Of a stretch of 64,000 bases of DNA, positions 1 through 36,880 are shown piece by piece. The notes beneath the pieces are model-generated. The model ran no database searches, was not told where the DNA came from, and worked only from the letters and a program-made list of their open reading frames with translations. The position numbers and the translations under genes were made by a program. The stretch comes from Xenorhabdus ishibashii (GTDB lineage Bacteria; Pseudomonadota; Gammaproteobacteria; Enterobacterales; Enterobacteriaceae): NCBI RefSeq assembly GCF_002632755.1, contig NZ_NJAK01000001.1, positions 1 through 64,000 of the forward strand. Direction: 5' to 3'. Position 1 is the stretch's first letter, and the number at the start of each line of letters is the position of its first letter.

Positions 1-1158
1 CAGGGTTCTGTAGCTGGGCTTCCGGCAAGTAATGGCGGGTCAGTAATAACAGTTCGTTATCCACGGGGAACGTGTAACAGATACTGGTGATATCCCCGTT
101 GAAGATAAATCTAATCCAGCGTAGCATTCCAAGCCTTTGAGGTCGTTTTCGTCATAGTCTGACTGGCAGTCTTTCCATGCGCCTTCACCCATCCACGGCG
201 TTTCACCCTGACACCAGATATTAAAGCGTTTGGTGAGCATCTCAGTCCATTGCGAGGGAATGCCTCGTGCTTTCTGGATTGTGTCGTGCAAAGCATCACT
301 GTCTACGGAAACATTCAGGTTAGGATTAGCCTTTATCCAGAGGGCTTCATCATCAATCTCGTTCTCGTCGTCCAGTTCGTAGATCAGGGCAAACAGGGAT
401 TCATTTTGTTCTTCACCCTCCAATATCTGACAGCAATAATCATAGTGCTGTTTACAGGCGGATATCACGTTACTGCCTGCCGTAGTAATGGCAAACAGAA
501 TGCCTTCGGGACGGGCGCCCATCCCCAATTCAAGGGCAGAGTAAACCGCGTTATCGGGGTGCAAATGATACTCATCGACAATAGCAAGGCTGGGGTTAGT
601 ACCCTCAATCGTGGCGGCTTTGGCTGCCAACGGTTTTAACAGGCTGTTGCTCTTGGTATAAGTCACTTTGTGTTGCTGGATAGATACCCGCTTCTTGAGT
701 GGTTTTGAAAGCAGGCACATCTGGCGGGCATCATCAAACACAATACGCGCCTGATCCCGACTCACGGCGGCGGTGTAAATATCCTGCTGCCCGTTCTCCA
801 TCACCAGAAACCAGTTAGCCAGTATCGCGGCTACCGTGGATTTGGCATTTTTGCGCGGCACCTGAATATAAGCACTGCGGTATTTCCGGCGACCGGTGGC
901 CTTAACCTTGAAGCCGAACAGATTCGCAAAGGCGAACTGTTGCCACGGTTCAAGCATAATCGGCTTACCGCGCAAGTGGCCTTTGACGTGCGGGCAGAGA
1001 CGGGAAAAGCCCACAAAACGTTCTACAACTTCGGTATCGAACATATAAAGCGGGTTATTCAGGTCGTTAAAGTAGCGTTTCACGGCCTGTTTTACCCGTT
1101 TACAGGCCGGAATATTGCCGTTTTTGATATCAAAAGCGTACTGTTCCCATGCGTTCAT
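1..1158 (-). pseudogene. Terminase large subunit of the island (frameshifted, runs off window)
   Basis: Large terminase of the HK97-like type that cuts and pumps DNA into proheads. The ATPase region is visible: a Walker A-like VPRKNAKS around residue 100 and Walker B AIVDEY around 193, followed by the start of the nuclease domain (AGLDLSSTG). At positions 94-97 a run of four C (G on the coding strand) shifts the frame and gives a stop at 40. Adding one base restores an open frame (STGDITSICYTF...) that continues to the window edge. It is therefore a recent lesion or a sequencing error. It is the last gene of the head module and lies just after terS. The remaining 3' part is outside the window. 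Confidence 0.85.
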
Positions 1159-1169
1159 CGGGGTATCAC

Positions 1170-1529
1170 TCAGGCCATCAGCACATCTAAATCGTCGGGT
1201 TCATCGCTTTCTACCGGATTTCGGCGGCGGGAAACCGGATCAAAGCCCAGCAATGACGACATTTTTATCATGATTTTTTCCGCATCGGCTTTCGCTTTCA
1301 GTGAGGGGTTACTGGTCGCTGCACCGCGTGAACCTTCCACTGCGAACCCGCGCACTTCAATGTCTTCAACGGCTTTACGGTAAATCGCATAGTTAACGCA
1401 ATAGAGTTCTAAGTTGTTCCAGTCTGCTGGGCTGAGATCTTCCCGTTCGTTGAGGATTTTGGCTTTTGATTTCCATTGCTCGGCGGCAATCTCATTTAAA
1501 TAAACGGGGGGTTTGGGTGCTCTTGCCAT
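1170..1529 (-). CDS. Terminase small subunit, P27 family
   Basis: A 119-residue protein with the typical P27-family look: a short basic N terminus (MARAPKPP), an EQW..K..IL segment, a central LSPADWNNLELYC stretch, and an acidic C terminus. It should recognise the packaging site and recruit TerL, which starts 11 bases downstream. In cf-PICIs the small terminase decides that island DNA rather than phage DNA is packaged. The family call is by recognition; DNA specificity cannot be read from the sequence. Confidence 0.85.
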   Translation of the reverse strand: MARAPKPPVYLNEIAAEQWKSKAKILNEREDLSPADWNNLELYCVNYAIYRKAVEDIEVRGFAVEGSRGAATSNPSLKAKADAEKIMIKMSSLLGFDPVSRRRNPVESDEPDDLDVLMA

Positions 1530-1657
1530 AATCTATTGTTTCCTATGAAGTTACTGCTATTGAAAAAAGTGCCGTGCATAAAAATTCGAGGGGGCGGGTG
1601 GTGCCATGAGGCAGGGCGTTTGTCATTTTTGACACCCCACCCCTTCTGAGTGCTTCT

Positions 1658-1825
1658 CTAGCGATTTCGGAAGCATTCCATTAGCTCCCTATCACGCTGT
1701 GTCTTGCGCCTCGCTGTGGGTTTCTCAGGCGCAATCTGATTTTGTTGTCGGTAAGGTTCACTGTGCTTGAGTAACCCTTTAAGGAGTTGATCCACTTCAT
1801 CTTCACGCATCTTGGTTATACTCAT
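1658..1825 (-). CDS. Small hypothetical protein between HNH and terS
   Basis: A 55-residue basic protein from the ATG at 1825 (MSITKMREDEVDQLLKGLL), with a C terminus rich in Arg and Lys. The start overlaps the end of the HNH gene by 23 bases, which suggests translational coupling. A later ATG at 1810 is an alternative start. I do not recognise a family. Its position in the packaging module and its charge fit a small accessory DNA-binding protein, but that is inference. Confidence 0.45.
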   Translation of the reverse strand: MSITKMREDEVDQLLKGLLKHSEPYRQQNQIAPEKPTARRKTQRDRELMECFRNR

Positions 1826-2249
1826 GAATCCAGTTATTGCGCTGGGCTGCCTTTGCTTCCAGTTCCCGATATTCCCCATTCTTACGCCGCTGTTTCGTTG
1901 TTGGGTCAGTGGTCACGGTCTTTCGACTGTGGCAGCTATTACATAGCGGCTGGTGATTGAAGTCAGGCCAAAACAGCACATCACTACCACCGTCAATGGG
2001 TATGATATGATCCACAATCGTCGCTGGGGCATACACACCTACCTTGAAACAATGCACACACAGCGGATTGGACTTAAGGAATTGCAGACGGTATTTATCC
2101 CATGCAGGGGTATAACCTCGCTCACGCCTTGAGCCTCGTTTACTGTCCTGTTGTCGTCTAGCTTCCCGTTTGTGCTGCTCACAGCGACCAGACTTGACCC
2201 GCTCACGGCAATTGGGATAGCTACAGCGCTTTAACGGTTGCCACGGCAT
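1803..2249 (-). CDS. HNH endonuclease of the island head module
   Basis: A 148-residue HNH nuclease. Zinc-ligand Cys residues are visible in the N-terminal part (CSYPNCRERV, RCEQH) and around the core (LCVHCFKVG ... CNSCHSRK), and the catalytic segment is VDHIIPIDGG. HNH proteins sit next to terS/terL in HK97-like phages and cf-PICIs, where they are needed for terminase cutting at cos. The start overlaps the stop of the connector gene, as expected in a tight operon. A second, different HNH gene lies in the outer prophage at 15441-15791. Confidence 0.85.
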   Translation of the reverse strand: MPWQPLKRCSYPNCRERVKSGRCEQHKREARRQQDSKRGSRRERGYTPAWDKYRLQFLKSNPLCVHCFKVGVYAPATIVDHIIPIDGGSDVLFWPDFNHQPLCNSCHSRKTVTTDPTTKQRRKNGEYRELEAKAAQRNNWIHEYNQDA

Positions 2250-2551
2250 CAGTAGACTCCTACATCACGATAGACAGACCATAATGATTTGATGGTGAAC
2301 GGGATTTCTTTCAGTTCCTTATCTGCCACCATCGAACGAGTTTCATACAGTAAACCGATATAAAGTAAACAGCCAACTTTGATCGCCGGACTGAATACCA
2401 AGCCATCATCAAAGCGCTTGCCGATATGTTGCTGGCAGACTTCTAAGGCAGCATTGGCATAACCTTGAAGTAAGGTATCTTCTAACGTATCACTTTCATC
2501 TATCCGGCAATGTTGTTTGATTTCGTCCAATGTTATGAGAGGGTTACTCAT
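2249..2551 (-). CDS. Head-tail connector, HK97 gp6-like
   Basis: A 100-residue protein beginning MSNPLITLDEIKQHCRID, the usual opening of gp6/phage_connect_1 adaptors (LxxxKxHxRID). These form a ring below the portal and give the docking site for tails. In a cf-PICI this is the interface with helper tails, so it matters for which helper can be exploited. In corrected frame the portal stop overlaps this start by 8 bases. Confidence 0.8.
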   Translation of the reverse strand: MSNPLITLDEIKQHCRIDESDTLEDTLLQGYANAALEVCQQHIGKRFDDGLVFSPAIKVGCLLYIGLLYETRSMVADKELKEIPFTIKSLWSVYRDVGVY

Positions 2552-3759
2552 CTTTCACCTCTGTTTTTTTAATACTGACCTCTTGCTTCCATGCCTGGCT
2601 AAACTCATCGCCACCATCACGGGGGATAATCCCTCGCGTTCACGGGCTTCATTCGGGCACATCACACCGGATTTAATCGCCGTCTCGTAGCTCTGAAAGC
2701 GTTCTTTCGGATTGGCTCGCAGTAGATCGGCTGTGTCAAATTCAACTTGGTAGCGAATGCCTCGTTTTGGTGAGTTCATCAGCAAGGCGGACTTGATTTG
2801 CTGCTCAAAGTTAGCCAGCCACGGGCGCATGGTGATCGTCAGAAAAGCGCGTGATGCTTCGCTAAAATTACTGTAGGTACTGTTCGAATACTCTTGCAGG
2901 AAGATCGGGCTGACATTGAACATACGGGCAATATCTTCAATCGTGAAGCGACGAGAGGCCAGCCATTCCGCATCTTGGTTGCTCATGCCTAACTGTTGGT
3001 ATTCCATCCCCCCTCAAGAATGGGCGTTTTCCCTGCATTGCGAGCGCCCTTATAACGTTCGAGGGCTTCCAGTGCCTTATTGCCCTTGATGCCATCCAGC
3101 CAGTCAGCGGCTTTAATCACGCCCGCTGCCATCATGCCCTCTTTCATTATGCTGGCACCGTGGCGCTGTTGTGCCAGCCCCAAACCCAGTGTTTCACGGC
3201 AGATGGTGACTGGCGAACGCCCCAAAAAGCCATCTTCGGTGGCATAACGCAAATGCAATACTTCTTCTTGTAGGTAGGTTTTGACCTTGCCGCTATAAGG
3301 TTCGGTAATGGTGTAAGCAAAGCGGTGATCCGATAATCGTTGCGGCACAACCGCTGACGGTGGGTAAGGGTGCAACGATTGTGGCTGTCCGTCTTTTCCC
3401 CAGACTATGACTGCATACGCATTACCATTGAGTAAGCAATGACGCATCAGGGTTCGCTTAAACTGAAAAGGCGTCTGGCAGTCATTCGGGTATTCATTGA
3501 GCAAATAATCCACGGGGTGATCACTGAGCCATTCGCGGGACTCCTTGCCGTTCTGGTGCTGAACCCGATAGAGATAGCAAGGCATGGTCGCCACGGCTTC
3601 ACTAATCACCGTGACAGCATTCATCACGGCGGGTAAGCCTTCGGCTGTAGACGGTGAAACATGCTCGCCTGATTTGGTGTTAGATATACCTGCCAGAGAA
3701 AGAAACTCATCAATACTGACACTGCGAGTCTCAGCGGCTTTACGCTTAAAAGGCCACAT
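2544..3759 (-). pseudogene. Portal protein, HK97 family (two frameshifts)
   Basis: Portal subunit, the twelve-fold ring through which DNA enters the capsid. The N-terminal piece (3759 to 2989) begins MWPFKRKAAETRS and covers the usual stem and wing region; the C-terminal piece (about 3007 to 2555) contains MFNVSPIFLQ and SNSTYSNFSEASR, typical of the family. The two overlap out of frame at a six-C run (3008-3013), where one more base restores the frame (ILEGGMEYQQLG). A second contraction at the five-G run 2621-2625 changes the tail; with one base added the protein ends KKTEVKDE at 2544, for about 405 residues in all, a normal length. Either a double mutation or assembly error. Confidence 0.85.
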
Positions 3760-3761
3760 AG

Positions 3762-4310
3762 TTACACCTCGGACAGTTGCAGCCAGTAATGACGCAAATC
3801 AACATTGTTAGGCTTAACCCTATTCAGCGAACGCTTGGCAATCTCAACACCGCTTTCAGGGTAGGCGGGTAAACTGGTGACAGTGATTTCCCGTAGTTCC
3901 GCTTCTAAAACGGTTCTCAGATAAGGCTCCTGACCCACATCCCACTGATCTTTGATAGCTCGAAAGCCAAAAGACATACCGGAAATATCACCCCGTTCAA
4001 CTAGTGCCAGTACATCACGCCCTAATTGGGTATCAGGCGGGGTTAACTCAAAGCGTAATCCGGTGGCATCTTCGGCAAGCTGCAATGTACCAGACGTAGT
4101 ACGGCCTAACAGGTTCATGTGATCATGTTCATAAAGCGCCCTGACATCTGTACCCGCCGTTAAGCTGGTGCTAAACGCATTCGGGGCGAACTGCTCGACA
4201 AACTCATCCCACAAAACTTGTGATCGGCTGTTCCACTTAATGACATAACCGGTCAGTTTCTTATCACTGGCAGACAGGGAAGCGGTGCGGATTTCAAAAT
4301 CATTTTTCAT
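3762..4310 (-). CDS. Prohead maturation protease, HK97 (S78) family
   Basis: A 182-residue prohead protease that removes the capsid delta domain during head maturation. Visible family features are GYVIKWNSRS at the N terminus, the catalytic-His region LYEHDHMNLLGRT, the catalytic-Ser region DISGMSFGF, and REITVTSLPAYPES near the C terminus. The order portal, protease, capsid is the standard HK97 order. The reading frame is intact, unlike the portal just downstream. Confidence 0.9.
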   Translation of the reverse strand: MKNDFEIRTASLSASDKKLTGYVIKWNSRSQVLWDEFVEQFAPNAFSTSLTAGTDVRALYEHDHMNLLGRTTSGTLQLAEDATGLRFELTPPDTQLGRDVLALVERGDISGMSFGFRAIKDQWDVGQEPYLRTVLEAELREITVTSLPAYPESGVEIAKRSLNRVKPNNVDLRHYWLQLSEV

Positions 4311-4351
4311 TGGTAGACTCCAGACTACAAAGGGGCGCAGTGCCCTTATCG

Positions 4352-5506
4352 TTAACCCGCTTTCGTGCCTTTGATTTCGAGCACTTTGATTGCGTTGGAA
4401 TCCACCAGACCACCACCCAAATATTTATCCGTGTGTACCTTGTAGTACCCCGGTTCGGTGATATTGTCAGGACGGGTGCGTGTGCCGGTATCATGGTCAA
4501 CGATGAAGTAACCGCGTTTGAAGTCACCCAGACCGATAGCATCATCCGGCATAAATTCGAGATAATGGACAGGCAAGCCCAGTAACATATCAGGATCACC
4601 TGCTTGCAGACGTTCGCGCCAGATGTAATCACCGTTGCCGTTTTTCAGCTTCTGCACTTTGGCAGCCGTCGTGGAGTTCATCACCCACACCGCATTTTTA
4701 CGGTATTTGTTCCTGAGCAGGAATTTCAGGTCAATCAGGCTATCGGCTTCCAGTTTGGCAACTTCCAGCTTTTGCAACGTACCGAACGCACGGGCTTTAT
4801 CGGCTTGGGTATCACGAGGATAAGACAGGAAGCCTTTCGCTTTCTTGCTGCCGTCACCACTCACAAGATCGGTTTCTTCGGTATCAACAAACGTATCTGC
4901 AATTTCTGAGGTTAACCAGCCTAAAATATCGACATCGCTAAAATCGATGATTTCTTGGGTAGTCTTAGGGTAGGCATAAATCGGAAACAGCTTGATGCTG
5001 ACTTCTTCCATCGTCGGTGTGGCTGTCTCACTGCGTGCCTTGCCTTCTTCCCCGTGGGCGACGGCTGCACCCCCGACCGAAACAAGCTGTTTATACTCAT
5101 TACTACGCGTGGTCTTAATCGTACAAATCCGGCGCATAACCGACTCATCAGCCAGTTGCTGCATGATCTGTTTATTCAGCTCAGGGATAACGGTATAGCC
5201 ACCTTCGGAGGGTACGCTCGTAGACAAGGTGCGGGTTTCTCCGGTCACGATATAGTGACGCAGTTCATCATTGCTGAGTGTTTTACTGGCGGGCTGGTTC
5301 TTGGCCTGATTTCGCTCTTCATCCGATAAAGCCTCATAACGGGCGATTTCTGCATTCAGGGCACCGGACTGACTGCGCAGCTCGTCAAACTGTTTAGCTT
5401 CATCGGCATTAAGAGAGCGCTTTTCGTCTTCGGCTTTGGTGAGAAGAGAACGCATCTGCTGGGTTAAATCGGCTTTTTGCTGGCGTAATTCGAGTAATTT
5501 CTTCAT
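4352..5506 (-). CDS. Major capsid protein, HK97 fold
   Basis: A 384-residue HK97-type coat protein. Residues 1 to about 100 form a charged, coiled-coil-like scaffolding (delta) region (LRQQKADLTQQMR), followed by the mature domain beginning near LSTSVPSEGGYTVIPE. The C-terminal DHDTGTRTRPDNI and YKVHTDKYLGGG segments are typical of the family. The presence of its own capsid gene separates this island from classical PICIs that hijack and resize helper capsids. First gene of the head operon, preceded by a terminator at 5662-5690. Confidence 0.92.
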   Translation of the reverse strand: MKKLLELRQQKADLTQQMRSLLTKAEDEKRSLNADEAKQFDELRSQSGALNAEIARYEALSDEERNQAKNQPASKTLSNDELRHYIVTGETRTLSTSVPSEGGYTVIPELNKQIMQQLADESVMRRICTIKTTRSNEYKQLVSVGGAAVAHGEEGKARSETATPTMEEVSIKLFPIYAYPKTTQEIIDFSDVDILGWLTSEIADTFVDTEETDLVSGDGSKKAKGFLSYPRDTQADKARAFGTLQKLEVAKLEADSLIDLKFLLRNKYRKNAVWVMNSTTAAKVQKLKNGNGDYIWRERLQAGDPDMLLGLPVHYLEFMPDDAIGLGDFKRGYFIVDHDTGTRTRPDNITEPGYYKVHTDKYLGGGLVDSNAIKVLEIKGTKAG

Positions 5507-5661
5507 GGTGCCTCTGCATGTAGGTTAAGGGTTCGCTGTCATGCAGGTTTGAGGAAGCGGTAGCGGGTTAGCACTACCGCCTTTGAGGACTTGCTACAGA
5601 GCAATTGAAGTCAGGACGTGCCTACATGGTTCAGCAATCACTATTTAACACCATGAAAAAT

Positions 5662-5690
5662 AATAAAAAAGACCTCGTGATAGGAGGTCT
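5662..5690 (-). terminator. Intrinsic terminator upstream of the head operon
   Basis: On the minus strand a 7-bp stem (AGACCTC/GAGGTCT, bases 5670-5676 and 5684-5690) is followed by a T run. It would stop transcription from the replication side before the capsid gene, so the head genes probably have their own promoter within 5507-5660. Confidence 0.65.
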
Positions 5691-5735
5691 AAACAAGGGG
5701 AAACATGAGGACGGGATATTTACAAATCTTTACTT

Positions 5736-5996
5736 TTATTTTTCACTCATCCAATCCGGCGCGTCGTTCATGATTTCTCTGAACGCCTGTAATTGTTCTA
5801 TCAATACATCTAACTGCTCTTTATTGGTTGCCAGTATTTCCTCAGAAAATGTGTGGCGCAGACTACCACCTGAATCCTGAAAGAAAAAAGCATGACCATT
5901 GACCAACTGGCGGTACTCGCTTGTATGTAAATCGTCTAACTGCGTAATACCGTAATAATCGTAGTGTTCTCTGATATCTTCTTGCGTAATCGGCAT
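5736..5996 (-). CDS. Hypothetical island protein, 86 residues
   Basis: Small acidic protein (MPITQEDIREHYDYYGI...), start supported by a GGGG-type ribosome site 6 to 9 bases upstream. It contains a Leu-rich helix (EQLDVLIEQLQAFREIM) that could form a coiled coil. It lies between the origin region and the head operon and overlaps no other gene. No family recognised. Confidence 0.6.
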   Translation of the reverse strand: MPITQEDIREHYDYYGITQLDDLHTSEYRQLVNGHAFFFQDSGGSLRHTFSEEILATNKEQLDVLIEQLQAFREIMNDAPDWMSEK

Positions 5997-6014
5997 AATA
6001 TTCCCCTTATATAA

Positions 6015-6248
6015 TTATTCTACTTCTCTGAATAGGGTTACTTGGAAAGTTTCTAAGGCTTCAGCTATCCCACGAATGTTCATCGCTAATTCATCCCGTG
6101 CCGCTGTCTTCATGAATGCGGCTATAAGCTCTGGGTGCTGTTTGGCATACCCCTCACCGAACAAAGCATCTATTTCTTTGACTGCTCTTTCCATCCAGTA
6201 CGCGGCTGAATTAGCTGCCTGTCTTTCAATCGTTGTTGCATCTAACAT
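6015..6248 (-). CDS. Hypothetical island protein, 77 residues
   Basis: Starts at the ATG at 6248 (MLDATTIERQAANSAAYWMERAV), chosen because a GGAG sits 5-8 bases upstream; the longer reading to 6335 would run into the iteron cluster. Predicted to be all-helical. It is the first gene on this side of the origin and is followed by the 86-residue gene. Function unknown. Confidence 0.6.
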   Translation of the reverse strand: MLDATTIERQAANSAAYWMERAVKEIDALFGEGYAKQHPELIAAFMKTAARDELAMNIRGIAEALETFQVTLFREVE

Positions 6249-6284
6249 ATGTTCTCCATTTTTGTATATATATAGTGAAAAGTT

Positions 6285-6659
6285 ACCGACAACACCGACA
6301 AACCGACAATGAGGTAAAATACAATTTAATATCAATTAGATACACTGTTAAATCGTTGTCGGTTAATTGTCGCTCAATTTTTTGATATCGCTAGAATTAC
6401 AATATTATTGTTATCTTTCATGTAGATAAACATCACTTCCTGTTGTCGAAAACCGACAACGCTACTTATAAACTCTTTCATATTTATCCGAATCCTTTTG
6501 CCTACCAAAAAAAGAAAGTTTTTCTTCTGGCAGGTGCTTTGTTTTAAGTCCGCCAATGAAAACGACAAATCGACAACGTACCGACAAACATTTAACATTT
6601 TAGTATATTGATTTATAAGATATTTATATTACTGTTGTCGGTTTGTCGGTGTTGTCGGT
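6285..6659. repeat. Iteron array with exact 25-bp terminal inverted repeat; putative island origin
   Basis: The octamer ACCGACAA (or its complement TTGTCGGT) occurs nine times exactly here: 6285, 6294, 6302, 6356, 6452, 6580, 6635, 6643 and 6652, with further one- or two-mismatch copies near 6367, 6443, 6561 and 6569. The outer clusters, 6285-6309 and 6635-6659, are exact reverse complements of each other over 25 bp and flank an AT-rich core. The array abuts the 3' end of the primase-helicase gene. P4-like satellites and PICIs have iteron origins beside their Rep/primase gene, so I infer a replication origin. The ORF inside it (6374-6598) is not believed. Confidence 0.75.
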
Positions 6660-6681
6660 CAGTTTTACGCGTATAGAGAAT

Positions 6682-9393
6682 TTATTCTTCTATTTCATCA
6701 GTGGAATACATCAGCACATAATACTTACGGGGTGAGCCGTTGTGCTTCATGCCTTGCACCTTAAAGCCACCATTTGCGGCCTTTCTTAGCATCCCTGATT
6801 CAGCGAGAACCCGCGCAAACATCTTCGTATCGAACGTTTCTGATACCTCATTCTCGAACACATCTGGGAATGTGTAGAAATGGATAAGGCCGGCATTATT
6901 GGGGATATCGCTGGTATCTTTTCGGTAGCCTGCAAGGTTAGAAATAGTGGCATGATCATAGGTGTACGGTTCTGGTGCATACCGACTCAATCCAAAACGG
7001 TCTAAAAATGCCTCGGTTTGTTCCCGTATCTGTTGGTGTTCTTTATTGGCAGTACCAAATTCAGCCACCCACGCATTAAAGCAGTGTTGAATTGCGTCTC
7101 TGCTTTCCTGTTCTGTCCATCCGGTGAGATGCGTCGCTGCAATAAGTGCCCCCTCTAAGATGGCGAACCGTTCTGCCACGCGGGGAAGTTGTGCCCCAGC
7201 GCCTTTGGGGATCAACCCATTCCAGCGGATTTTGGCTTCTTCAATGGTGTTTCTCGTTGCTTTTTGATGCTGAGTCAGATATTCACACCATACCCGCCCA
7301 ATAGCCCCATGATTGTCAGCAATGGCTTTTTCGATTGCCTTAGCGTGTTCTCTGGCATCCTGATAACCATGTAAAACAGTCGGGCTACTGAACGGAATAT
7401 TCAGCAACCGGACAAGCTGGCCTGCTTTCATGCGCTTGCCCTCACTTCTGACAAACGTATCAAGATCGACCTCGCCAGTACTGATAGCTATCGTTTTAAA
7501 CTGGAGAATGTCACGGTTGCCGCCACCTCTTGCCCCTTGTAACTTGCCTTTGCCGTTAAACAGCGCATAAGACGCATTAGCCACATCTTTAACCGATGAT
7601 CCCTGCCCGACTTCATCAAGAGGTAACAGGTTGTTATTATGGGCGGCGGCTTCATTAATCAATCCCAATGTAGTTGCAAACCACGTTAAACGCATGGCAG
7701 ACGGCTCACCAAAGACACTACAGCCGACGCTTTGCGCGGTGGTTTTCCCTGCGGTGCTCTGGTCATAAAAGTGAACCCCAAAGCCATCATCACGCAATAA
7801 ACCGATAACCGGGGAAGCTAACGCAGCCGCAATGGACAGCATCATAAAGGGATTGCCTTTGGCTAATTTGGCTACTGAGTCACGCCAGCTTTCAGGCGTT
7901 CCTGCCACGGTATACCCGCGTATTGATGATGTTCTGCCACAAAAGATAACGGACTTCTCTGGAGTGCCAATCACCTCGCCCGTTGGGAAGATGTAAGCCC
8001 CATGCTGCCAGCCTGTTGAGTGGGTAATGTGCCAGTCGGTTTTTTTAGCACAGCGTTGTAACCAATCCGATAGCGTGTGACGTAAAAAAGGTTTAGTGGC
8101 AATATTCAATCCTGCGGCTTTGAGCTGTCGCCAGCCTTCATTTGCGCCAACATCACCTGTTTTCACTGCCTCAGTGTAAGTTGTCCCGTCTTCTTCCCAC
8201 TGGATAATCAGATAAAATTCAATATCATCACGACCGCGCCCGATCACCTTCATTGAGTCACTGAGCCATTGCTCATGGTTGATAATTTCGCCGCTCTCTT
8301 TGTCCACCTTTGGCGTAACGTAATAAATTCCGTTTTTACGCTCATCAATAAAGGGCTTTAACGGATCACGCTCTTTTGTCCGGTGTTCGTCCAGATTAAT
8401 GACGATTGATTTTGATACTGACATATTCTCCCCCACCTGATACAACCCTTCACTGAATGCCTGTTTTGCTGCCTCGATACCGTGATGCTGGCGATAATCG
8501 TCCCAATCAGCCTTGTGCTCTGTTGGCGGTAACGCTACCCACCCATTAATAGCCTTAGCGGTCTTCTCGGCTGCAATCTTGCCGACGTTCTTCTTGGGCT
8601 TACCTTTGTCGTCCAGTTCTTCCGGTGAGTGCCAATCATTGTCAGCCGCCAGAATGATTTTTACTGTTGGCCACCGCTCTCTGATCTGTTTAGCCACAGT
8701 CGGTAAATTTCCTTCATCAATAGCAGCCAGCACCAAGCCCTCATGCAATTGGTCGACCGTTAAGGCCGTTGCATAGCCCTCAGCAATAATGATCGTGTCC
8801 GGCGTTCCAATTACGGGCGATAAGGGGATAAAGCTCCCCTTTTTCTTCGAGCCGGGGACAAAGCGCTTTTCACCACTCGGCTTAATGACCTGCGCACCGG
8901 TGATTGTGCCGTCCAGTGCCTGAATGACCAGCAACAACGAACCGTCTTTCAGTAGCTTCTGATTGGGACATTGCAGCCCCTTTTGAGTCAGGTAGTCGGA
9001 TTGTCCGATAGTGGATTGAGCCACCAGCTTGTTAACTTTCTCGGTGATGGGTTGAGCCTCTGATTTTAGCGCCTCCTTTCTGGCGGGCTTGGGTTCTGGT
9101 AAGGGAAGCAACAACGCCTCAGAAACCACCTTAGCCGCTTCAATTACCGTGATACCTTTGACCTTCATCAGTAAATCAAAGCCATCGCCGTGATTCGGGT
9201 TATCACACTGGCGACAATGCCAGTCACCGTTACCGTGATCGTCTATGAAGTGAAAACGGTCAGTACCGCCACAGATAGGGCAAGCACCATGCTTACCCTT
9301 TGCTGGAACATCCACCCCACAAGCAGACAACAAACCTTGCCATTGCCCTTGCGCCGCTGCTTTCACCGACCGAATATCAATATGACTTACCAT
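6682..9393 (-). CDS. Primase-helicase (P4 alpha-like, DUF927) of the island
   Basis: A 903-residue multidomain replication protein. Residues 35-70 hold a CHC2-type zinc finger (CPICGGTDRFHF ... WHCRQC). Around 200-260 is a Toprim-like part (IIIAEGYATALT, LAADNDWHS). The C-terminal half is a DUF927/SF3-like ATPase with FYDQSTAGKTTAQ as Walker A and LLPLDEVGQ as Walker B. This arrangement drives autonomous replication of P4-like satellites and PICIs from an adjacent iteron origin, which is present at 6285-6659. Its start overlaps the end of the upstream gene by 7 bases. Confidence 0.9.
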   Translation of the reverse strand: MVSHIDIRSVKAAAQGQWQGLLSACGVDVPAKGKHGACPICGGTDRFHFIDDHGNGDWHCRQCDNPNHGDGFDLLMKVKGITVIEAAKVVSEALLLPLPEPKPARKEALKSEAQPITEKVNKLVAQSTIGQSDYLTQKGLQCPNQKLLKDGSLLLVIQALDGTITGAQVIKPSGEKRFVPGSKKKGSFIPLSPVIGTPDTIIIAEGYATALTVDQLHEGLVLAAIDEGNLPTVAKQIRERWPTVKIILAADNDWHSPEELDDKGKPKKNVGKIAAEKTAKAINGWVALPPTEHKADWDDYRQHHGIEAAKQAFSEGLYQVGENMSVSKSIVINLDEHRTKERDPLKPFIDERKNGIYYVTPKVDKESGEIINHEQWLSDSMKVIGRGRDDIEFYLIIQWEEDGTTYTEAVKTGDVGANEGWRQLKAAGLNIATKPFLRHTLSDWLQRCAKKTDWHITHSTGWQHGAYIFPTGEVIGTPEKSVIFCGRTSSIRGYTVAGTPESWRDSVAKLAKGNPFMMLSIAAALASPVIGLLRDDGFGVHFYDQSTAGKTTAQSVGCSVFGEPSAMRLTWFATTLGLINEAAAHNNNLLPLDEVGQGSSVKDVANASYALFNGKGKLQGARGGGNRDILQFKTIAISTGEVDLDTFVRSEGKRMKAGQLVRLLNIPFSSPTVLHGYQDAREHAKAIEKAIADNHGAIGRVWCEYLTQHQKATRNTIEEAKIRWNGLIPKGAGAQLPRVAERFAILEGALIAATHLTGWTEQESRDAIQHCFNAWVAEFGTANKEHQQIREQTEAFLDRFGLSRYAPEPYTYDHATISNLAGYRKDTSDIPNNAGLIHFYTFPDVFENEVSETFDTKMFARVLAESGMLRKAANGGFKVQGMKHNGSPRKYYVLMYSTDEIEE

Positions 9394-9698
9394 TTTGGGA
9401 ATCCCTCGCGGTGATGGATTTCAAACTGAGCGTTTTGCTGCGTGTCATTCAGGGCTTCGGCAATTCGGGGCAGGTACATCAGGGCTTCACCGATACGGCG
9501 TAAATCCTCCCTTGCCTGACGATTGTCATAGTTTTCGTTATCAACTGACCAGAAAGCCATTTCCCCCATTGCAGACATTGCCGCCATCACGCTACTCAAT
9601 GCCCCTTCGGAGTTTTTGCGCAGATCTTTGAGTTCTTCGGTGCTCAGGTCGTTAAAGCTGGTGCGTACCAAATGTTTATAGATATCAGACATGATCAT
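9387..9698 (-). CDS. Hypothetical protein upstream of the primase
   Basis: A 103-residue acidic helical protein (MIMSDIYKHLVRTSF...). The ATG at 9698 overlaps the stop of the DUF4222-like gene as ATGA, and ATG 9692 is an alternative. Similar short proteins are common between Icd/DUF4222 genes and P4-type primases in enterobacterial satellites. No function known to me. Confidence 0.65.
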   Translation of the reverse strand: MIMSDIYKHLVRTSFNDLSTEELKDLRKNSEGALSSVMAAMSAMGEMAFWSVDNENYDNRQAREDLRRIGEALMYLPRIAEALNDTQQNAQFEIHHREGFPKW

Positions 9699-9864
9699 GC
9701 TCTCCCTGCGTAGGTGTATTCTTTAGTGAATCGGCTTAATGGCATGGTGCACGGGGTGTGATAACCATCACGGACAAAGGTCACGCGATTAAAGGCGACT
9801 GACAGCACTTGTACGGCTTCCCCGTTCTTATGGGTGTAATAGTCATGGGGGCTGGGTTACGCAT
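9695..9864 (-). pseudogene. DUF4222-like small protein (frameshifted)
   Basis: The downstream frame reads HDYYTHKNGEAVQVLS ... VRDGYHTPC, the pattern of DUF4222 proteins, but has no in-frame start. The ATG at 9864 (MRNPAP) joins it if one base is added to the five-G run at 9847-9851. The corrected gene would be about 56 residues, start 8 bases inside the Icd-like gene, and end with an ATGA overlap with the next gene. This is the fourth homopolymer contraction seen in the island. Confidence 0.6.
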
Positions 9865-10105
9865 GATTCACCCCCTGAACGGTAGACATATCGCTACAGT
9901 TGAAAGGAGTATCGATACCGATATCCCATGCTTGACGGGAAACGAATATCAGCGAGGACATGCCAGCCAGTAGACGGGCTTCAACTTCACTATCCGCCAG
10001 CACAGTGATAAGGCGCGCCGGATGAATATCCACCAATCGCTGAGTGCCTGATGCAATTAGGAATGTAAATTTAAGGCGAGTTTGGTTATGCTGTGGGGTA
10101 TCCAT
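9857..10105 (-). CDS. Icd-like (host cell division inhibitor-like) small protein
   Basis: An 82-residue protein from the ATG at 10105 (MDTPQHNQTRLKFTFLI). The segment ADSEVEARLLAGMSSLIFVSRQ matches the conserved C-terminal part of Icd-like/Ash-linked small proteins of P1- and P4-type elements (pattern D-x-E-x-E-A-R-x-x-L). In P1, icd follows the C4 antisense RNA and precedes ant. A GGAG-type site precedes the start. A second Icd-like gene occurs in the outer prophage at 29477-29647. Confidence 0.6.
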   Translation of the reverse strand: MDTPQHNQTRLKFTFLIASGTQRLVDIHPARLITVLADSEVEARLLAGMSSLIFVSRQAWDIGIDTPFNCSDMSTVQGVNHA

Positions 10106-11020
10106 AGCGTAAGACTCCTTTACGTTTTTGGTTAGACGCCTCGATAGTGTTGTAGCACTTCGGGGCGTTGTTGTTTTTGGTCTACACTTGTCATACACTT
10201 GATGTATAAGTCCAATATAAACAGGAGTAAACCAAGTGTCAACCATTAAAATATCAGGAAAGGGAAATAAGCAAATCGCGTTAAGAGTAGAACCATCCCT
10301 TGAGCAAGGAATAAAAGCAGCGTTAGCCCAAGATGGTGACGCTTCTGTATCTGCATGGATAAAGAGAATTATCCGTAAAGAGTTGCAATCTCGCGGCATT
10401 GAACAATAACTAACCGACCGACAATAAGTCCGGTGGTTAACCGAATGAATATCTTTCACTTGGTTGACTGACTCGAAATAATCATAGTAGTTAACCAATT
10501 GATTTATCTCATGACGCAAAGACGCGTGATCCCAAAGGGTAGCATTCGCCGTGCTATCCTTTTCTTTTTGCACTCCACTAAATGATGACTGCAAAGTTTG
10601 CGCGTCGCTAAATGATACGCGCATATTATGACCAGACTGCATATTTGCAGTGCGATTAGATATCAATGGGTTAAGCAGCCACCCCGAAATAATCGGGGAG
10701 CCTCCCAAACTACGACCAAACGCCAATCTGACGGTCAGCGGGGAAATCAATGAGTTACTGAGGTGTCCGAAAATATTCGCATACCCATCAGCGAAATATT
10801 TCTCCGATTGGAACTGAGCGAAAAGTTTCTCTGAGTGACCAGCCAAAGTGAGGACTACGGTATTCTTCGAGGTCACTGAGTTAATGACCTCGGTAACGGG
10901 ACTCCTTAAACTAAAGGAATTCCTATAGTTAATTTTTCCCCGACTTGAGGTTAATTGTTCAATATTTGGTCTTTGATTCCCCCGTTTCGGGGGAACAGAG
11001 AGTGCTTTATGACCGCTCAT
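9857..11020 (-). CDS. Uncertain long ORF coupled to the Rha-like gene
   Basis: From the ATG at 11020 (MSGHKALSVPPKRG), with a strong GGAGG 8 bases upstream that overlaps the end of the Rha-like gene, an open frame runs to 9857. The first roughly 200 residues could be a real protein. The part opposite 10236-10409 is antisense to a convincing plus-strand gene, and the end is the Icd-like protein. I suspect the real product stops earlier, perhaps through an unseen frameshift near 10430. No family recognised. Confidence 0.35.
   Translation of the reverse strand: MSGHKALSVPPKRGNQRPNIEQLTSSRGKINYRNSFSLRSPVTEVINSVTSKNTVVLTLAGHSEKLFAQFQSEKYFADGYANIFGHLSNSLISPLTVRLAFGRSLGGSPIISGWLLNPLISNRTANMQSGHNMRVSFSDAQTLQSSFSGVQKEKDSTANATLWDHASLRHEINQLVNYYDYFESVNQVKDIHSVNHRTYCRSVSYCSMPRDCNSLRIILFIHADTEASPSWANAAFIPCSRDGSTLNAICLFPFPDILMVDTWFTPVYIGLIHQVYDKCRPKTTTPRSATTLSRRLTKNVKESYAMDTPQHNQTRLKFTFLIASGTQRLVDIHPARLITVLADSEVEARLLAGMSSLIFVSRQAWDIGIDTPFNCSDMSTVQGVNHA
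10135..10169. other. Hairpin in the Icd-like leader
   Basis: GACGCC at 10135-10140 pairs with GGCGTT at 10164-10169, with further inner pairing (GTG/CAC). Similar stems precede icd-like genes in P1/P4-type elements, where the leader is a target of C4-type antisense control. That role is inferred; only the inverted repeat is seen. Confidence 0.35.
10183..10207 (+). promoter_or_regulatory. Operator-like repeats upstream of the RHH gene
   Basis: TACACTTG occurs at 10183-10190 and 10194-10201, an 11-bp phase, and the second copy lies within the palindrome ATACA-N5-TGTAT (10193-10207). Ribbon-helix-helix repressors bind tandem half-sites about one helical turn apart, so this is a likely autoregulatory site for the gene starting at 10236. 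Confidence 0.5.
10236..10409 (+). CDS. Arc-like ribbon-helix-helix DNA-binding protein
   Basis: A 57-residue protein from GTG at 10236, preceded by AGGAG. The sequence KQIALRVEPSLEQGIK followed by SVSAWIKRIIRKEL fits a beta strand plus two helices of the RHH fold (strand, then helix with conserved small residues, then SxxxWIxxxI). It is divergent from the int/alpA side and reads against the main operon, a usual place for an island repressor. It could be the master repressor (Stl-like role), which is inference. Confidence 0.7.
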   Translation: MSTIKISGKGNKQIALRVEPSLEQGIKAALAQDGDASVSAWIKRIIRKELQSRGIEQ

Positions 11021-11024
11021 CAAA

Positions 11025-11714
11025 TTAGCCTCCAATGCGCCCTGTAGGGTTCATTAGTGTTGCGAACAGCTCAATACGGCGGCTTACTTCCCTCAGTGCT
11101 TGTGTTGGTGATTGCCCTGCATTCCTTGCATCTTGAAAAGCAGCCTGTTCAATCTTCTGAATACAGACAAGTAATCCTAACTGTTGCTCATCTGCGTTCT
11201 GGCGTTCACCATCCAGTAAACCCGCAAAGCGATTCTCAGTACGAGCAAGGTTGATGTAATGGTGACGTTCTGCGCCCAGATCACGTAAAGCATCACGGGA
11301 TTCATGATAGTTAGGCAGATATTCACGACGTATAGGTTCAGCAGCTCGCTTCTTAGCAAAGGCTTTTGTTACATCCAGCTTAAACTGAACCATCAGATCA
11401 TGATCACGCCCTCTAATAAGTCGGCACATAAAGTCGAACTGGTCTTCATTGAGCAAGGCGTATTTATGCTTACGTTCACCAAGTTGCTCAGTATTTAATC
11501 GCTCCGTTTGAAACGGAAGGATTCCAAACTGCCTTAAATTCTTAGTGTTCTTCCTAATTAATTCATAAAGGCTCTTATGCTGAATTCCGATGCGCTTAGC
11601 AAACAGGCGTGAATCAATTCTCGATTCAGTTCTATGCTGAACCAAAATAAGCTCTTGGCTGTTTTCAGTGTGAGCAAGTCCCTGACCATTTAAGGCCATA
11701 TTTTTAGATGTCAT
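11025..11714 (-). CDS. Rha-family regulator (pRha domain)
   Basis: A 229-residue protein. The N-terminal half (SRIDSRLFAKRIGIQHKSLYELIRKN ... LNEDQFDFMCRLIRGRD) is the pRha domain with a winged-helix start and the typical NEDQ..F..LIRG motif. The C-terminal half is helical and Arg/Glu rich. Rha proteins regulate phage and satellite gene expression, and are common next to alpA in P4-like islands. It is coupled to the gene downstream at 11020. Confidence 0.75.
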   Translation of the reverse strand: MTSKNMALNGQGLAHTENSQELILVQHRTESRIDSRLFAKRIGIQHKSLYELIRKNTKNLRQFGILPFQTERLNTEQLGERKHKYALLNEDQFDFMCRLIRGRDHDLMVQFKLDVTKAFAKKRAAEPIRREYLPNYHESRDALRDLGAERHHYINLARTENRFAGLLDGERQNADEQQLGLLVCIQKIEQAAFQDARNAGQSPTQALREVSRRIELFATLMNPTGRIGG

Positions 11715-11732
11715 ATTTCTACCCTGTCTTAA

Positions 11733-12014
11733 TTAATTTGATTTTCGGCTATAGGGGTTATTTACGTTCTCTACTGTTGGAGGATTACGTACCCACCACA
11801 AAACATCACTTAATAACCATGAGACGGAATTACGCCCCAATGGAACGCGTTTAGGAAATTTACCTTCTTCCTCTAATACCCAACGACGAGAACGCGATAA
11901 ACTGGAAAGATGCTCACATTCTTTTTCCCTGATTCGACGATCATATTTCTCGCCATACTCATTTAAAATTGATTGTCGTTCTTGTGGTGTCGGTGATGTA
12001 AACTTCATTGCCAT
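11733..12014 (-). CDS. AlpA-like transcriptional regulator (second copy)
   Basis: A 93-residue protein with the AlpA pattern: LSSLSRSRRWVLEEEGKFPKRVPLGRNSVSWLLSDVLWW, that is a helix-turn-helix, FPK/R, and a GRxxxxWxxSDVxxW segment. AlpA controls excision and early gene expression in PICIs of Gram-negative bacteria. It is paralogous to the 74-residue AlpA at 12083-12307 and separated from it by a terminator. Confidence 0.75.
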   Translation of the reverse strand: MAMKFTSPTPQERQSILNEYGEKYDRRIREKECEHLSSLSRSRRWVLEEEGKFPKRVPLGRNSVSWLLSDVLWWVRNPPTVENVNNPYSRKSN

Positions 12015-12031
12015 ATTTTTATATTCTCCAA

Positions 12032-12054
12032 AAACAAAAACCCCGCGAGCGAGG
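12032..12054 (-). terminator. Intrinsic terminator between the two alpA-like genes
   Basis: Minus-strand stem CCTCG-CTCG-CGGGG followed by a TTTTTG run. It would separate transcription of the int-proximal AlpA gene from upstream transcription. Note that it lies downstream of the second AlpA copy's promoter region, so it probably ends transcripts reading in the minus direction from int. Confidence 0.55.
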
Positions 12055-12082
12055 TTATTATTAATTTAAATGATGTTTAATT

Positions 12083-12307
12083 TTATTCTGGCTTCCAAGT
12101 GCCTTTTATCCATGCCTGAATTTCAGACAATCGATAAACTTTAGTTTGTGGACCTATCGTTATTTTTAAAGGAAACTTGCCATTTTTTTCAAGATATGAC
12201 CTGTGTCTTCTTCCTAATGAGGTTAACCATTCACACTCTTCTTCTCTAATTAGTCTATCAAGTTCATCTGAATATTCTAATTCTTCACGAGTGAATATAT
12301 GTATCAT
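12083..12307 (-). CDS. AlpA-like transcriptional regulator
   Basis: A 74-residue protein with CEWLTSLGRRHRSYLEKNGKFPLKITIGPQT and VYRLSEIQAWIKG, the AlpA/HTH_17 pattern. Its start overlaps the end of the integrase gene by 23 bases, so it is translated from the int transcript. This int-alpA pair is a hallmark of Gram-negative PICIs and P4-like islands. Confidence 0.8.
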   Translation of the reverse strand: MIHIFTREELEYSDELDRLIREEECEWLTSLGRRHRSYLEKNGKFPLKITIGPQTKVYRLSEIQAWIKGTWKPE

Positions 12308-13511
12308 TTTCTATTTCCTCCTCAATTAAAGAGTCTAAATAATTCACCCACCAGTAGAGTGCATTTCTTTTTTGTTCAATATATTGACTTCGATTATATA
12401 TTCCAGAGACTCCATTGAGTGAATGGCCTAATAGTTGTTCAACCACGTTATGTTCAAATCCGTTATCACTGAGTATGGTAGCAAACACTCTTCGTATATC
12501 GTGCGCTGTCCACTTTTCTTTGTGGTTTAATCTTTTCCATATTTTCGCAATAGTCACACTTGCCGTACATTGTTTGACATCAAAGCCAATGACATATTCT
12601 CTCTTTTTTGTTGATTGGTTCAATAACAACAACCAGTTTTTAAAATTACTGGGGATCGGTCTGATTATTTCCCTGCCATTTTTACTGTGCTCTGGCGGCA
12701 CTCTCCATATATTGTTTGAAAAATCCCATTCATCCCATTTCGATAGACGTATTTCGGAAAGCCTACACCCAAAAACGATTAAAAACCGAAGAATAATTCT
12801 GTTTTCGTGAGACATAATGTGGTTATCATATTCTTTATTTATATAGAGCCATACATCACGTAATTCATCATTAGTTAACACTCTGTCTCTTCTATTAGCT
12901 TTTTCACCCACATCACCAACATCCAAATCATCTATCTCATGGCTAATTGCATATTTTCTTACTCGGCAAAATTTCAATGCCTGTTGTGAGATTTTCAAAA
13001 GAGATCCCGCTTGCACTGGTGCATTCTCTTTAATTTTATCAAAGCATCTAATCCACATTGATAATGTGCATTCATTTAATGGAATATTTCCAATCTCTGA
13101 GTAAATATGTTTAGAAAAACAACCTCTAATATAGATTGCTGCTTTTCGTTTATTGGTGGCATAATTATTGAGCCAATATTCTATGGCATCTTTCACGGTG
13201 ACAGGTTTTAACGTATCTTCTTTTATTATTTTTATTTGTATTCGTGGATCTTTCCCTTTAGCTAACCATGCCCTGCATTTATCTCTTTGCTCTCTTGCAA
13301 CTTTAAGGCTTAAATCGGGGTATTTACCCAATGTTAACCATATCGGCGCACTTTCACGCCCATACAGGCGGTAGAAGAAAACAAAGCTGATTGTCCCTTG
13401 TTTACTTAATCTGATTGATAACCCGTTCCCGTCCGCTATCGTCTGCTGTTTTTCAACAGGTTTACCGTACAAGGATTTGAGCTTTTTATCACTGAGCTTG
13501 TTTACAGCCAT
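12285..13511 (-). CDS. Tyrosine integrase of the island (P4 type)
   Basis: A 408-residue integrase. N-terminal Arm-binding domain (MAVNKLSDKKLKSLYGK), a catalytic Arg in FGCRLSEIRLSKW, HDIRR as the H-x-x-R box, LLGHSL, and a C-terminal Tyr in GIYNRSQY. It sits at the right end of the island, about 150 bases from the point where the prophage terL reading breaks off, as expected for an integrase next to its att site. Confidence 0.92.
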   Translation of the reverse strand: MAVNKLSDKKLKSLYGKPVEKQQTIADGNGLSIRLSKQGTISFVFFYRLYGRESAPIWLTLGKYPDLSLKVAREQRDKCRAWLAKGKDPRIQIKIIKEDTLKPVTVKDAIEYWLNNYATNKRKAAIYIRGCFSKHIYSEIGNIPLNECTLSMWIRCFDKIKENAPVQAGSLLKISQQALKFCRVRKYAISHEIDDLDVGDVGEKANRRDRVLTNDELRDVWLYINKEYDNHIMSHENRIILRFLIVFGCRLSEIRLSKWDEWDFSNNIWRVPPEHSKNGREIIRPIPSNFKNWLLLLNQSTKKREYVIGFDVKQCTASVTIAKIWKRLNHKEKWTAHDIRRVFATILSDNGFEHNVVEQLLGHSLNGVSGIYNRSQYIEQKRNALYWWVNYLDSLIEEEIENDTYIHS

Positions 13512-13619
13512 CTACTAAACCTTTTCATTTTGCAATACACATTGCAATACGCAGAGAGGTGCAACAATCCACAAACACCAAAACGAATGAAAACACAAAA
13601 AATGGATTTATTTTTGTTT

Positions 13620-13695
13620 TTCATGAAATTATAAACAACATGAGCACATGTAATCCCATGTCATTTACAAAGTTTATATGCTTGGTGAAGAAATT
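13620..13695. other. Island/prophage junction (att region) inside terL
   Basis: The prophage TerL reads VSARHNFFTKHIN and then changes to unrelated residues (FVNDMGLHV...) and stops at 13621. Related large terminases continue with a NIWV-like segment here. The crossover probably lies within about 13660-13690, 150-180 bases upstream of the island integrase start. The other att copy should be left of the window. Confidence 0.7.
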
Positions 13696-14688
13696 GTGCC
13701 GCGCTGAGACCTGTTCTTTGGCTTTTTTCGCCAACCGGCGCAGATCATCCCAGCGTTTGCAGATGCCCAATCCGGGGTTGGCTTTCTGCCAGACGGTTTC
13801 ATCAAACGGGTCGTCGTCTTTGTCGAGGGTGTAGATAATGCCGAAGAAAGTGTCATCGTCCACCTGACCGCGCAGCACCTTGACGGCGTAGTCGCGCAGC
13901 TCGTAACAGATACCTTCCTTATTGAATCCCGCTGTAGTGATGCCGAACAGCAATGATTGCAACCGGGCACCGGTGGCGGTTTCCAGTACGTCCCACACAT
14001 CGCGGGTCTTGTGGGCGTGCAGCTCATCGACAATGCCGCAATGGATATTAAGGCCGTCAAGGTTGTTGGCATCACTGGACAGTGGCTCAAACTTGGACGC
14101 CGATTGTTCCTGATAAATTGCCAGCTTATTAAACTCAAACAACCTGCCCAAAGTGGATTTGGCTTGTTTGATCATGTTCTTGGCATCCTCAAACACAATC
14201 CGCGCCTGATCACGGGTCGTTGCCGCCGAATAGACTTCCGCCCCGCCCTCACTGTCCGCCCCTGTCATGTACAACCCGATGCCGGAGGATAAGGTCGATT
14301 TGGCATTTTTGCGTGCCACTTCGTTATAGGCGGTGCGAAAACGGCGCACCATCACCGGTCGTCCGCTGCCATCATTGCGTAGGACGGTTTCGCCAGTCTG
14401 TTCATCAATCAGCGGACGGACAAAGCCAAAGATATTGATGAGAATAAAGACATGCCAGTCCATCAGCTCAATGGGCTGGCCTGCCAGCGCCCCCTTGACG
14501 TGGGGCACGAATTTGTAAAAGTTCAGGATATGCTGGGCACGGGGTTCACTGAATATAATGCCTCGTTCCTTGCCCGTTTTCAGGTCATTCAGGAACCGCT
14601 GACAGGCGAGTCTTACCAGTTCCCCTGCGACAATCTCACCTGCCACGACCCGTTCGGCGTAGCGAATGCCGTCAGATACTTTTGCCAT
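13621..14688 (-). pseudogene. Terminase large subunit of the outer prophage, truncated by the island
   Basis: N-terminal about 335 residues of a HK97-type TerL. Walker A-like NEVARKNAKS near residue 127 and Walker B CGIVDEL near 215 are present, but the nuclease domain is missing. The last about 17 residues are encoded by island-side DNA. It is different in sequence from the island TerL at 1-1158. Such a truncation should block packaging by the prophage unless the island excises precisely. Confidence 0.88.
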
Positions 14689-21534: not shown

Positions 21535-21679
21535 CAACGAGGTTCCTGTAATGAATAGGTCGCCAGCCGCAATAGACGATACTGAGGTTCTGTGAGTGAT
21601 TGCGGTGGCGAATTGGGAAGAGTTTGGAATAAATTCCTAAAAGGTGATATGTGTATAAAACAATAATACCTAAATAAAA

Positions 21680-36779: not shown

Positions 36780-36880
36780 GCAGAAAATAAATAAAATTAC
36801 AATTAAAATCATTATATTAATTAAAAACCCATGATTACGCGTGACTGTTAATGATAAGGTGTGACTAAGTAAATACATTC
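36780..36880. other. Prophage/host junction (att region) in the TAXI gene
   Basis: The host TAXI reading frame (LPENALKGVAVPLHLG...) becomes open at about 36865 and is followed upstream by a prophage-side AT-rich region. No duplicated att core is visible inside the window because the left end lies outside. The interval 36669-36864 holds only the integrase promoter region. Confidence 0.6.

What the first reader, a model, noticed from the sequence alone, without database searches (positions are those of the whole stretch)
1..14688. A capsid-forming satellite appears to be nested inside terL of a larger prophage
Seen: the minus-strand run from 13511 to 1 is int, alpA, alpA, rha, small regulators, primase-helicase, origin, HK97 capsid, protease, portal, connector, HNH, TerS, TerL, with no tail or lysis genes in view. 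That matches the described cf-PICI layout. Directly at its integrase end, a different TerL (13621-14688) with its own TerS and HNH is cut off after about 335 residues, within about 150-180 bases of the island integrase. Inferred: the island integrated into terL of the prophage to its right, so it both sits in and disables a possible helper, or uses precise excision to restore it.
Basis: partly seen in the sequence, partly recalled or inferred. Interest (0 to 1): 0.87.

Follow-up and report, generated by a model that had tools for sequence, protein, structure and literature searches.

The report
Capsid-making satellite inside a prophage's terminase
A small virus-like element with its own capsid genes sits inside, and splits, the DNA-packaging gene of a larger dormant virus in a Xenorhabdus bacterium; the arrangement is real, but it belongs to a kind of nested parasite already described in 2023.

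Summary
The finding is correct, and its sequence checks could be run on the whole genome (a Xenorhabdus). The left flank lies on contig C2: an 18-bp repeat (window 13679-13696; C2 39778-39795) bounds a 15.5-kb island, and C2 continues with the missing 3' half of terL, then portal, capsid, neck and tail genes. The helper prophage (about 44 kb) has its own 20-bp repeat; 8 of 8 relatives compared have the empty site. Unit-length permuted copies with the joined attP junction are present as extra sequence, so the island is probably excised or amplified. It has the capsid-forming-PICI head-and-packaging set and the two-armed attP motif of helper-embedded PICIs (PMC10111431). That paper lists terL positions 245 and 246; ours is most likely 245. 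The same terL split occurs in an E. coli genome and 11 virus records. So: a new member of a known kind. Apparently undescribed: this island, like 10 of 30 other satellite modules compared, lacks the head-closure gene, which its helper has. Excision, packaging and tail use are inferred.

The parts
13679..13696 (-). Island att core (int-side end), 18 bp, shared with the left end at C2 39778-39795 and the joined junction at C4 12041-12058
   Evidence: one match in the window with up to 2 mismatches for 17 of the 18 bases, 0.01 expected
12285..13511 (-). Tyrosine integrase (408 aa), helper-embedded-PICI type
   Evidence: Pfam Phage_integrase and Arm-DNA-bind_3; 95% to an X. bovienii protein, 70% to the E. 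coli integrase of L028
12083..12307 (-). AlpA-type regulator / excisionase 1
   Evidence: Pfam Phage_AlpA
11733..12014 (-). AlpA-type regulator / excisionase 2
   Evidence: Pfam Phage_AlpA
11025..11714 (-). Rha-type regulator
   Evidence: Pfam Phage_pRha; PHROG Rha-like and antirepressor families
9387..9698 (-). Small protein of unknown function before the primase
   Evidence: phrog_6805
6682..9393 (-). Primase-helicase (903 aa)
   Evidence: Zn_Ribbon_Prim, Toprim_3, DUF927
6278..6666 (.). Probable replication origin: inverted and direct repeats built on a TTGTCGGT-like unit next to the primase gene
   Evidence: function inferred from position
4352..5506 (-). Major capsid protein, HK97 fold family
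   Evidence: Pfam Phage_capsid 1.3e-63; PHROG major head protein
3762..4310 (-). Prohead protease
   Evidence: Pfam Peptidase_S78
2555..3759 (-). Portal protein; broken in the window by single-base homopolymer differences, open (418 aa) in a C2 copy
2249..2551 (-). Head-tail adaptor Ad1, directly after portal; no head-closure (Hc1) gene found
   Evidence: phrog_40; no Hc1 among island ORFs of 40 aa or more
1803..2249 (-). HNH endonuclease
   Evidence: Pfam HNH
1170..1529 (-). Island terminase small subunit
   Evidence: Pfam Terminase_4; 27% to the helper's TerS
1..1158 (-). Island terminase large subunit, 5' part; runs off the window (full length, 553 aa, in C4 13357-15018)
13697..14688 (-). 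Helper prophage terL, 5' half; the 3' half is on C2 from 39778 on
   Evidence: 89.6% to phage mEp235 TerL; continuation on C2
14690..15205 (-). Helper terminase small subunit
   Evidence: Pfam Terminase_4
15441..15791 (-). Helper HNH endonuclease
   Evidence: Pfam HNH
35406..36668 (-). Helper prophage integrase
   Evidence: phrog_1 integrase
36871..36890 (.). Helper prophage att repeat, 20 bp, right end (other end C2 60715-60734)
   Evidence: flanks contiguous in 8 of 8 relatives compared

Best explanation
This is a helper-embedded phage-inducible chromosomal island of about 15.5 kb that carries a capsid-forming-PICI type of head and packaging set. Its own tyrosine integrase put it into an 18-bp site inside terL of a mEp235-like prophage of Xenorhabdus. 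Shown from sequence: both ends of the island, both ends of the helper, the split terL and its collinearity with an intact phage TerL, head and tail genes on the far side, the attP arm motif, and copies with a joined attP junction. Inferred: while the island is in place the helper cannot make full-length TerL, so it cannot package its DNA. When the helper is induced, the island excises (integrase plus AlpA), which rejoins terL. The island replicates from its own primase and origin, builds its own HK97-type heads, fills them with its own TerS/TerL/HNH and takes tails from the helper. It lacks a head-closure gene, so its heads probably also use the helper's closure protein.
For: Left flank and att repeat. 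On C2 the terL 3' half, then portal, capsid, adaptor and head closure (profiles), tape measure, and protease and other tail genes (by eye). Empty helper site in 8 of 8 relatives compared, which ties C1 and C2 together. mEp235 TerL collinear with the two halves. Three unit-length permuted copies (15,499-15,501 bp) and one partial copy (14,361 bp) with the attP junction, no mismatches against the window. Two attP arm motifs against 0.07 expected, spacing compatible with PMC10111431 section 19. Similar layout in E. coli tcmA_3; three TerL pieces in 13 of 21 virus records searched.
Against: No reads, transcripts or particles were available. The multi-copy units could be a tandem array or an assembly product rather than circles. 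No contig with a rejoined terL was found in the genome. The window's own portal and TerL frames carry breaks, read here as consensus errors because the other copies differ only by gaps. The head-closure gene usual in such modules is missing.
Confidence: 0.85

Rival explanations
1. Region 1 is an ordinary prophage lying next to a decayed prophage; the terL truncation is decay, not insertion.
For: Gene order alone, seen from inside the window, allows it.
Against: The rest of terL follows the core on C2, collinear with an intact phage TerL, and head and tail genes come after it. Island head genes are not followed by tail genes. The core repeat bounds the island.
Confidence: 0.02
2. The island is a stranded relic: it sits in terL but no longer excises, so both elements are dead.
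For: Frame breaks in portal and TerL in the window copy. A degraded relative of the same module exists elsewhere in the genome. Two of 13 records with a split terL have a broken island TerL.
Against: int is open in all 5 full copies in the genome; att sites and both arm motifs are intact; joined attP junctions are present; other copies of portal and TerL are open.
Confidence: 0.08
3. The extra unit-length copies are a tandem array at terL or an assembly artefact, not excised circles.
For: C2 is a scaffold with 100-N gaps that places two units next to the integrated left end. PMC10111431 (section 13, passage) suspected one duplicated PICI to be an assembly artefact caused by partial activity.
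Against: Three copies are almost exactly one unit long with different break points, as expected of circular contigs. This does not exclude an array.
Confidence: 0.35
4. The island's TerL is a backup that replaces the helper's interrupted TerL, as the 2023 paper suggests in general.
For: PMC10111431 discussion passage on a backup intact copy; terL-site elements in HK97-type helpers here carry a terL.
Against: The two systems differ: island TerL is 34% to that of the helper's relative mEp235, island TerS 27% to the helper's. A terL-site element in a lambda-type helper (L149) has no terL that I recognised by eye among its listed ORFs.
Confidence: 0.12

Closest known systems
Helper-embedded PICIs (HE-PICIs), site A:Terminase_1:245 (Tommasini, Mageeney and Williams 2023, PMC10111431; abstract, sections 16-20 and passages read)
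   Same: [quoted passage not shown] terL is a listed site. The paper's prophage Ana29.79.guaB, with one satellite in terL and one in a tail gene, seems to be G780 here (inferred).
   Different: Xenorhabdus does not occur in that paper's main text. The element carries a head and packaging set; in the main text terL and connector do not occur, and portal occurs only inside a profile name. Supplements were not seen.
Capsid-forming PICIs (cf-PICIs; passages of PMC13230959, PMC11389934 and PMC12846349 read; the founding paper recalled, not read)
   Same: Capsid, portal, protease, adaptor, HNH, TerS, TerL and no tail genes found; 15-16 kb.
   Different: Integrated inside its presumed helper; lacks the head-closure gene.
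Escherichia phage vB_KppS-Ant (LR881103, 16.5 kb, 'induced prophage') and Pasteurella phage Pmp8 (OR544139, 15.3 kb)
   Same: TerL 79.0% and 72.5%; same head module order.
   Different: Both carry Hc1; the first is annotated with a tape measure gene and the second with a tail terminator; no embedding shown.
Enterobacteria phage mEp235 (Hendrixvirinae)
   Same: Relative of the helper: TerL 5' half 89.6%; intact terL across the island's site.
   Different: No island in its terL; full-length phage.

Membership tests
[quoted passage not shown]
HE-PICI | Doubled attP motif in two co-oriented copies, 81 and 132 bp (each +/-2) from the attP centre | tested here: met
   C4 11894-11913 and 12127-12146, same strand. 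Motif near edges are about 211 bp apart against 213 in the paper, if its distances run to the near edge (my assumption); the implied centre then falls inside the 18-bp core
HE-PICI | Integrase in the HE-PICI clade | tested here: inconclusive
   Relatives found by similarity carry the motif and many sit in late genes; no tree with the paper's reference integrases was built
HE-PICI, site A:Terminase_1:245 | Same terL position | tested here: inconclusive
   In 11 virus records terL is split at island-TerL residues 305-311, where the mEp235 alignment puts our core; one of the 11, with a second satellite further on, fits the paper's Ana29.79.guaB. The old Pfam profile is not held
HE-PICI | Excision after the composite is induced | not testable with these tools
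   Needs induction; attP junction seen in the assembly only
cf-PICI | Own capsid, protease, portal, adaptor, HNH, TerS, TerL; no tail genes | tested here: met
cf-PICI | Head closure gene (listed for TG54, an element classed as cf-PICI, in a passage of PMC13230959; whether it is required by definition was not checked) | tested here: not met
   No Hc1 among island ORFs of 40 aa or more; helper has it. I therefore say cf-PICI-type and do not file it strictly as a cf-PICI
cf-PICI | Makes its own small heads and uses helper tails (recalled as the hallmark) | not testable with these tools
   Inferred from gene content
Ordinary prophage | Tail genes contiguous with head genes | tested here: not met
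   C4 holds the whole island; past TerL it has only small ORFs before the attP junction, none with a tail family in the scans made

The most novel reading that the evidence does not exclude
Embedding lets a capsid-forming satellite give up part of its neck. In at least two lineages of these elements the head-closure gene is absent while the adaptor stays, so the satellite head would have to be closed by the protein of the very prophage it is embedded in. The particle would then be mixed at the neck, not only at the head-tail joint, and the satellite tied to that helper type.
Probability: 0.3. Interest if true: 0.65.

Novelty: new member of a known kind. Interest (0 to 1): 0.47.

Why it matters
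It gives a fully bounded helper-plus-satellite pair in an insect-associated bacterium, with both attachment systems defined and probable signs of activity in the assembly. It joins two satellite types usually discussed apart (helper-embedded and capsid-forming). The missing head-closure gene makes a direct test possible of which neck proteins a satellite head must take from its helper.

Tried and rejected
Rfam search of window 1-40000 at gathering scores and of 9300-12400 with E up to 1: no match, so no P4-type immunity RNA was recognised. tRNA search: none in the window. First attempt at helper ends by direct repeat: a 15-bp candidate, replaced by the 20-bp repeat that relatives show.

Idea that every element carries its own version of the gene it splits: partly held, then rejected as a rule. 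Clp-protease-site L118 carries a Clp-protease/capsid ORF and cap_E-site L140 carries cap_E, but portal-site L171 carries cap_E. In GpA-type terL-site L149, the ORFs of 80 aa or more listed up to the right arm include a protease/capsid ORF and none that I recognised by eye as a terL; only that one was profile-scanned. X. poinarii (a T-like tail gene site, by eye) carries the head set. What I saw fits better with helper type: none of the 44 of 80 virus loci with a right arm within 8-12 kb matched my HK97-type capsid, portal or TerL models. This is confounded with integrase clade, and several loci were too short to judge (X. innexi L058, X. kozodoii L057).

Idea that all embedded capsid-forming elements lack Hc1: rejected; the Arsenophonus-type ones and the second terL-site group have it.
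Full report
WHAT WAS CHECKED. The window is G000:C1:1-64000, the start of a 3.29-Mb contig in a 3.86-Mb, 5-contig genome. The host is a Xenorhabdus by inference: the nine closest integrases listed are named Xenorhabdus, and same-genus genomes have contigs whose lengths equal those of named X. khoisanae, X. poinarii and X. sp. BG5 records. The island's TerL and portal frames are broken in the window by single-base differences in homopolymer runs; copies with open frames exist elsewhere in the assembly.

THE LEFT END EXISTS. Searching the own genome with window 1-600 gave 8 places. C2:31200-39795 is the left part of the integrated island in reverse orientation. It adds 1.8 kb that the window lacks and ends in the same 18-bp core, CAATTTCTTCACCAAGCA, as the int-side end (window 13679-13696; C2 39778-39795). 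Beyond it C2 carries the terL 3' half. Then come portal, capsid, adaptor and head closure (profile matches), a 1111-aa tape measure protein, and a protease and further tail genes named by eye. Intact TerL of phage mEp235 runs straight through this point (NFFTKH). The helper's 5' half is 89.6% identical to mEp235.

THE HELPER IS BOUNDED TOO. One search returned loci of 11 relatives; I compared 8 (L203, L204 and L206 were not compared). In all 8 the sequence right of window 36871 and the sequence beyond C2 60715 are contiguous and overlap by 19-21 bp; the shared repeat is AAATACATTCTGCCTGAAAA. So one prophage of about 44 kb (window 13697-36890 plus C2 39778-60734) is split by the 15.5-kb island and by the contig break. 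This ties C1 to C2 independently of the island repeat.

EXTRA COPIES. C4 (15,501 bp), C2:1-15500 and C2:15601-31099 are each one island unit, opened at different points and carrying the joined junction; C5 (14,361 bp) is most of one. Aligned to the window they show gaps but no mismatches; in C4 and C2 the gaps are single bases. Five identical integrase genes are present. This fits excised circles or a tandem array; reads are needed to tell. No contig with a rejoined terL was found.

WHAT KIND OF ELEMENT. Tommasini et al. 2023 (PMC10111431; abstract, sections 16-20 and found passages read) describe 491 PICIs inside prophage late genes at 14 sites, name terL positions Terminase_1:245 and 246, and give a doubled attP arm motif not found in other PICIs. 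C4 has both copies against 0.07 expected. Copies lie at similar places in an E. coli element and in many virus records. E. coli tcmA_3 has the same plan: terL 5' half, int, two HTH/AlpA-type regulators, a BRO-N gene, DUF927 primase, capsid to TerL, terL 3' half, portal. It is not gene for gene the same, it holds an insertion sequence, and its protease, portal and connector are flagged as incomplete or frameshifted there. Its integrase is in 32 of 5426 complete E. coli genomes (only this one region was opened). Of 21 virus records searched, 13 show three TerL pieces (helper 5' part, island copy, helper 3' part). In 11 the split is at island-TerL residues 305-311, in 2 at residues 194-201. The island copy is unbroken in 11 of the 13. 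The other 8 are contigs with one piece (5) or none (3).

THE PACKAGING SET DIFFERS FROM THE HELPER'S. Of 3023 phage records with a TerL match, 5 are at 60-80% identity and 3018 under 60%. Four of the five were listed, at 72-80%: three small ones (10.7-16.5 kb) and one of 106.5 kb that also carries a related integrase. The next 21 listed are at 34-37%. Island against helper: capsid 33%, TerS 27%, HNH 41%, protease 28%. A recent copy from this helper is therefore unlikely.

A MISSING NECK GENE. Profiles for head closure (Hc1) and adaptor (Ad1) were run on ORFs of the loci then chosen and on 34 loci, mostly those with a head module reaching TerL. Two of the 34 are this island. Of 30 other satellite modules, 20 have Hc1 and Ad1, and 10 have Ad1 but no Hc1: E. 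coli L028, eight virus-record copies with a 69-71% integrase, and X. poinarii L060 (its Hc1 match lies in the helper part). The remaining two loci, the present helper and mEp235, have Hc1. PHROG profiles agree on Hc1 in the helper and vB_KppS-Ant and find none in the island proteins scanned. The near-identical copies are not independent. On trees of 27 TerL and 26 capsid rows (L017, L019, L072, L179, L180, L184, L185 left out as copies or broken; mEp235 missing from the capsid tree), absence needs 3 and 4 changes, with at least 2 and 3 forced by well-supported branches; the count cannot tell loss from gain. Against a simple rule: the Arsenophonus-type terL-site elements, the second terL-site group and the chromosomal X. 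sp. BG5 copy have Hc1. None of the titles or abstract starts listed in my searches dealt with it; the founding cf-PICI paper was not among those listed.

MECHANISM. Shown: the split, the bounds, the gene sets, the attP junctions. Inferred: TerL of the helper is unavailable until excision; excision follows helper induction, as measured for 11capE in PMC10111431 section 16 (where particles could not be isolated); island DNA goes into island heads; tails, and probably head closure, come from the helper.

VERDICT. Confirmed, and a new member of a known kind. The most novel part not excluded is the mixed neck.

Noticed in passing
G000:C1:1241092-1244535 (L025 11092-14535): A decayed relative of the island's head module: portal N-part fused in frame to the later part of TerL (632-aa ORF), with protease and a shortened capsid, near transposase-like ORFs by eye.
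   Followed up: partly
L056/L030 (Xenorhabdus sp. BG5): A close relative (integrase 89-90%) has no prophage gene recognised upstream, where ORFs look like phosphoglycerate kinase and aldolase; its core has 2 mismatches: probably an off-target insertion. It keeps Hc1.
   Followed up: partly
L060, L057, L031, L110: Xenorhabdus integrases 81-83% identical sit at other late genes (a T-like tail gene, a lambda-type portal, both by eye), so the target seems to change at this divergence.
   Followed up: partly
L149: An element inside a lambda-type (GpA) terL; a Clp-protease/capsid ORF was identified and no terL was recognised by eye.
   Followed up: partly
LR881103, OR544138, OR544139, PQ569648: Deposited as phages; the first and third have satellite-like gene sets (with one tail-annotated gene each), and all four have a TerL 72-80% like the island's.
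   Followed up: partly
window 20257-21537 and 22889-23290: Helper prophage carries a DNA methyltransferase gene and a small ORF that looks like a PemK-type toxin (recalled resemblance, not scanned).
   Followed up: no
window 50611-52470: Small putative secreted-protein ORFs, two of which end alike, next to a protease-like ORF at 49447-50400 (by eye).
   Followed up: no
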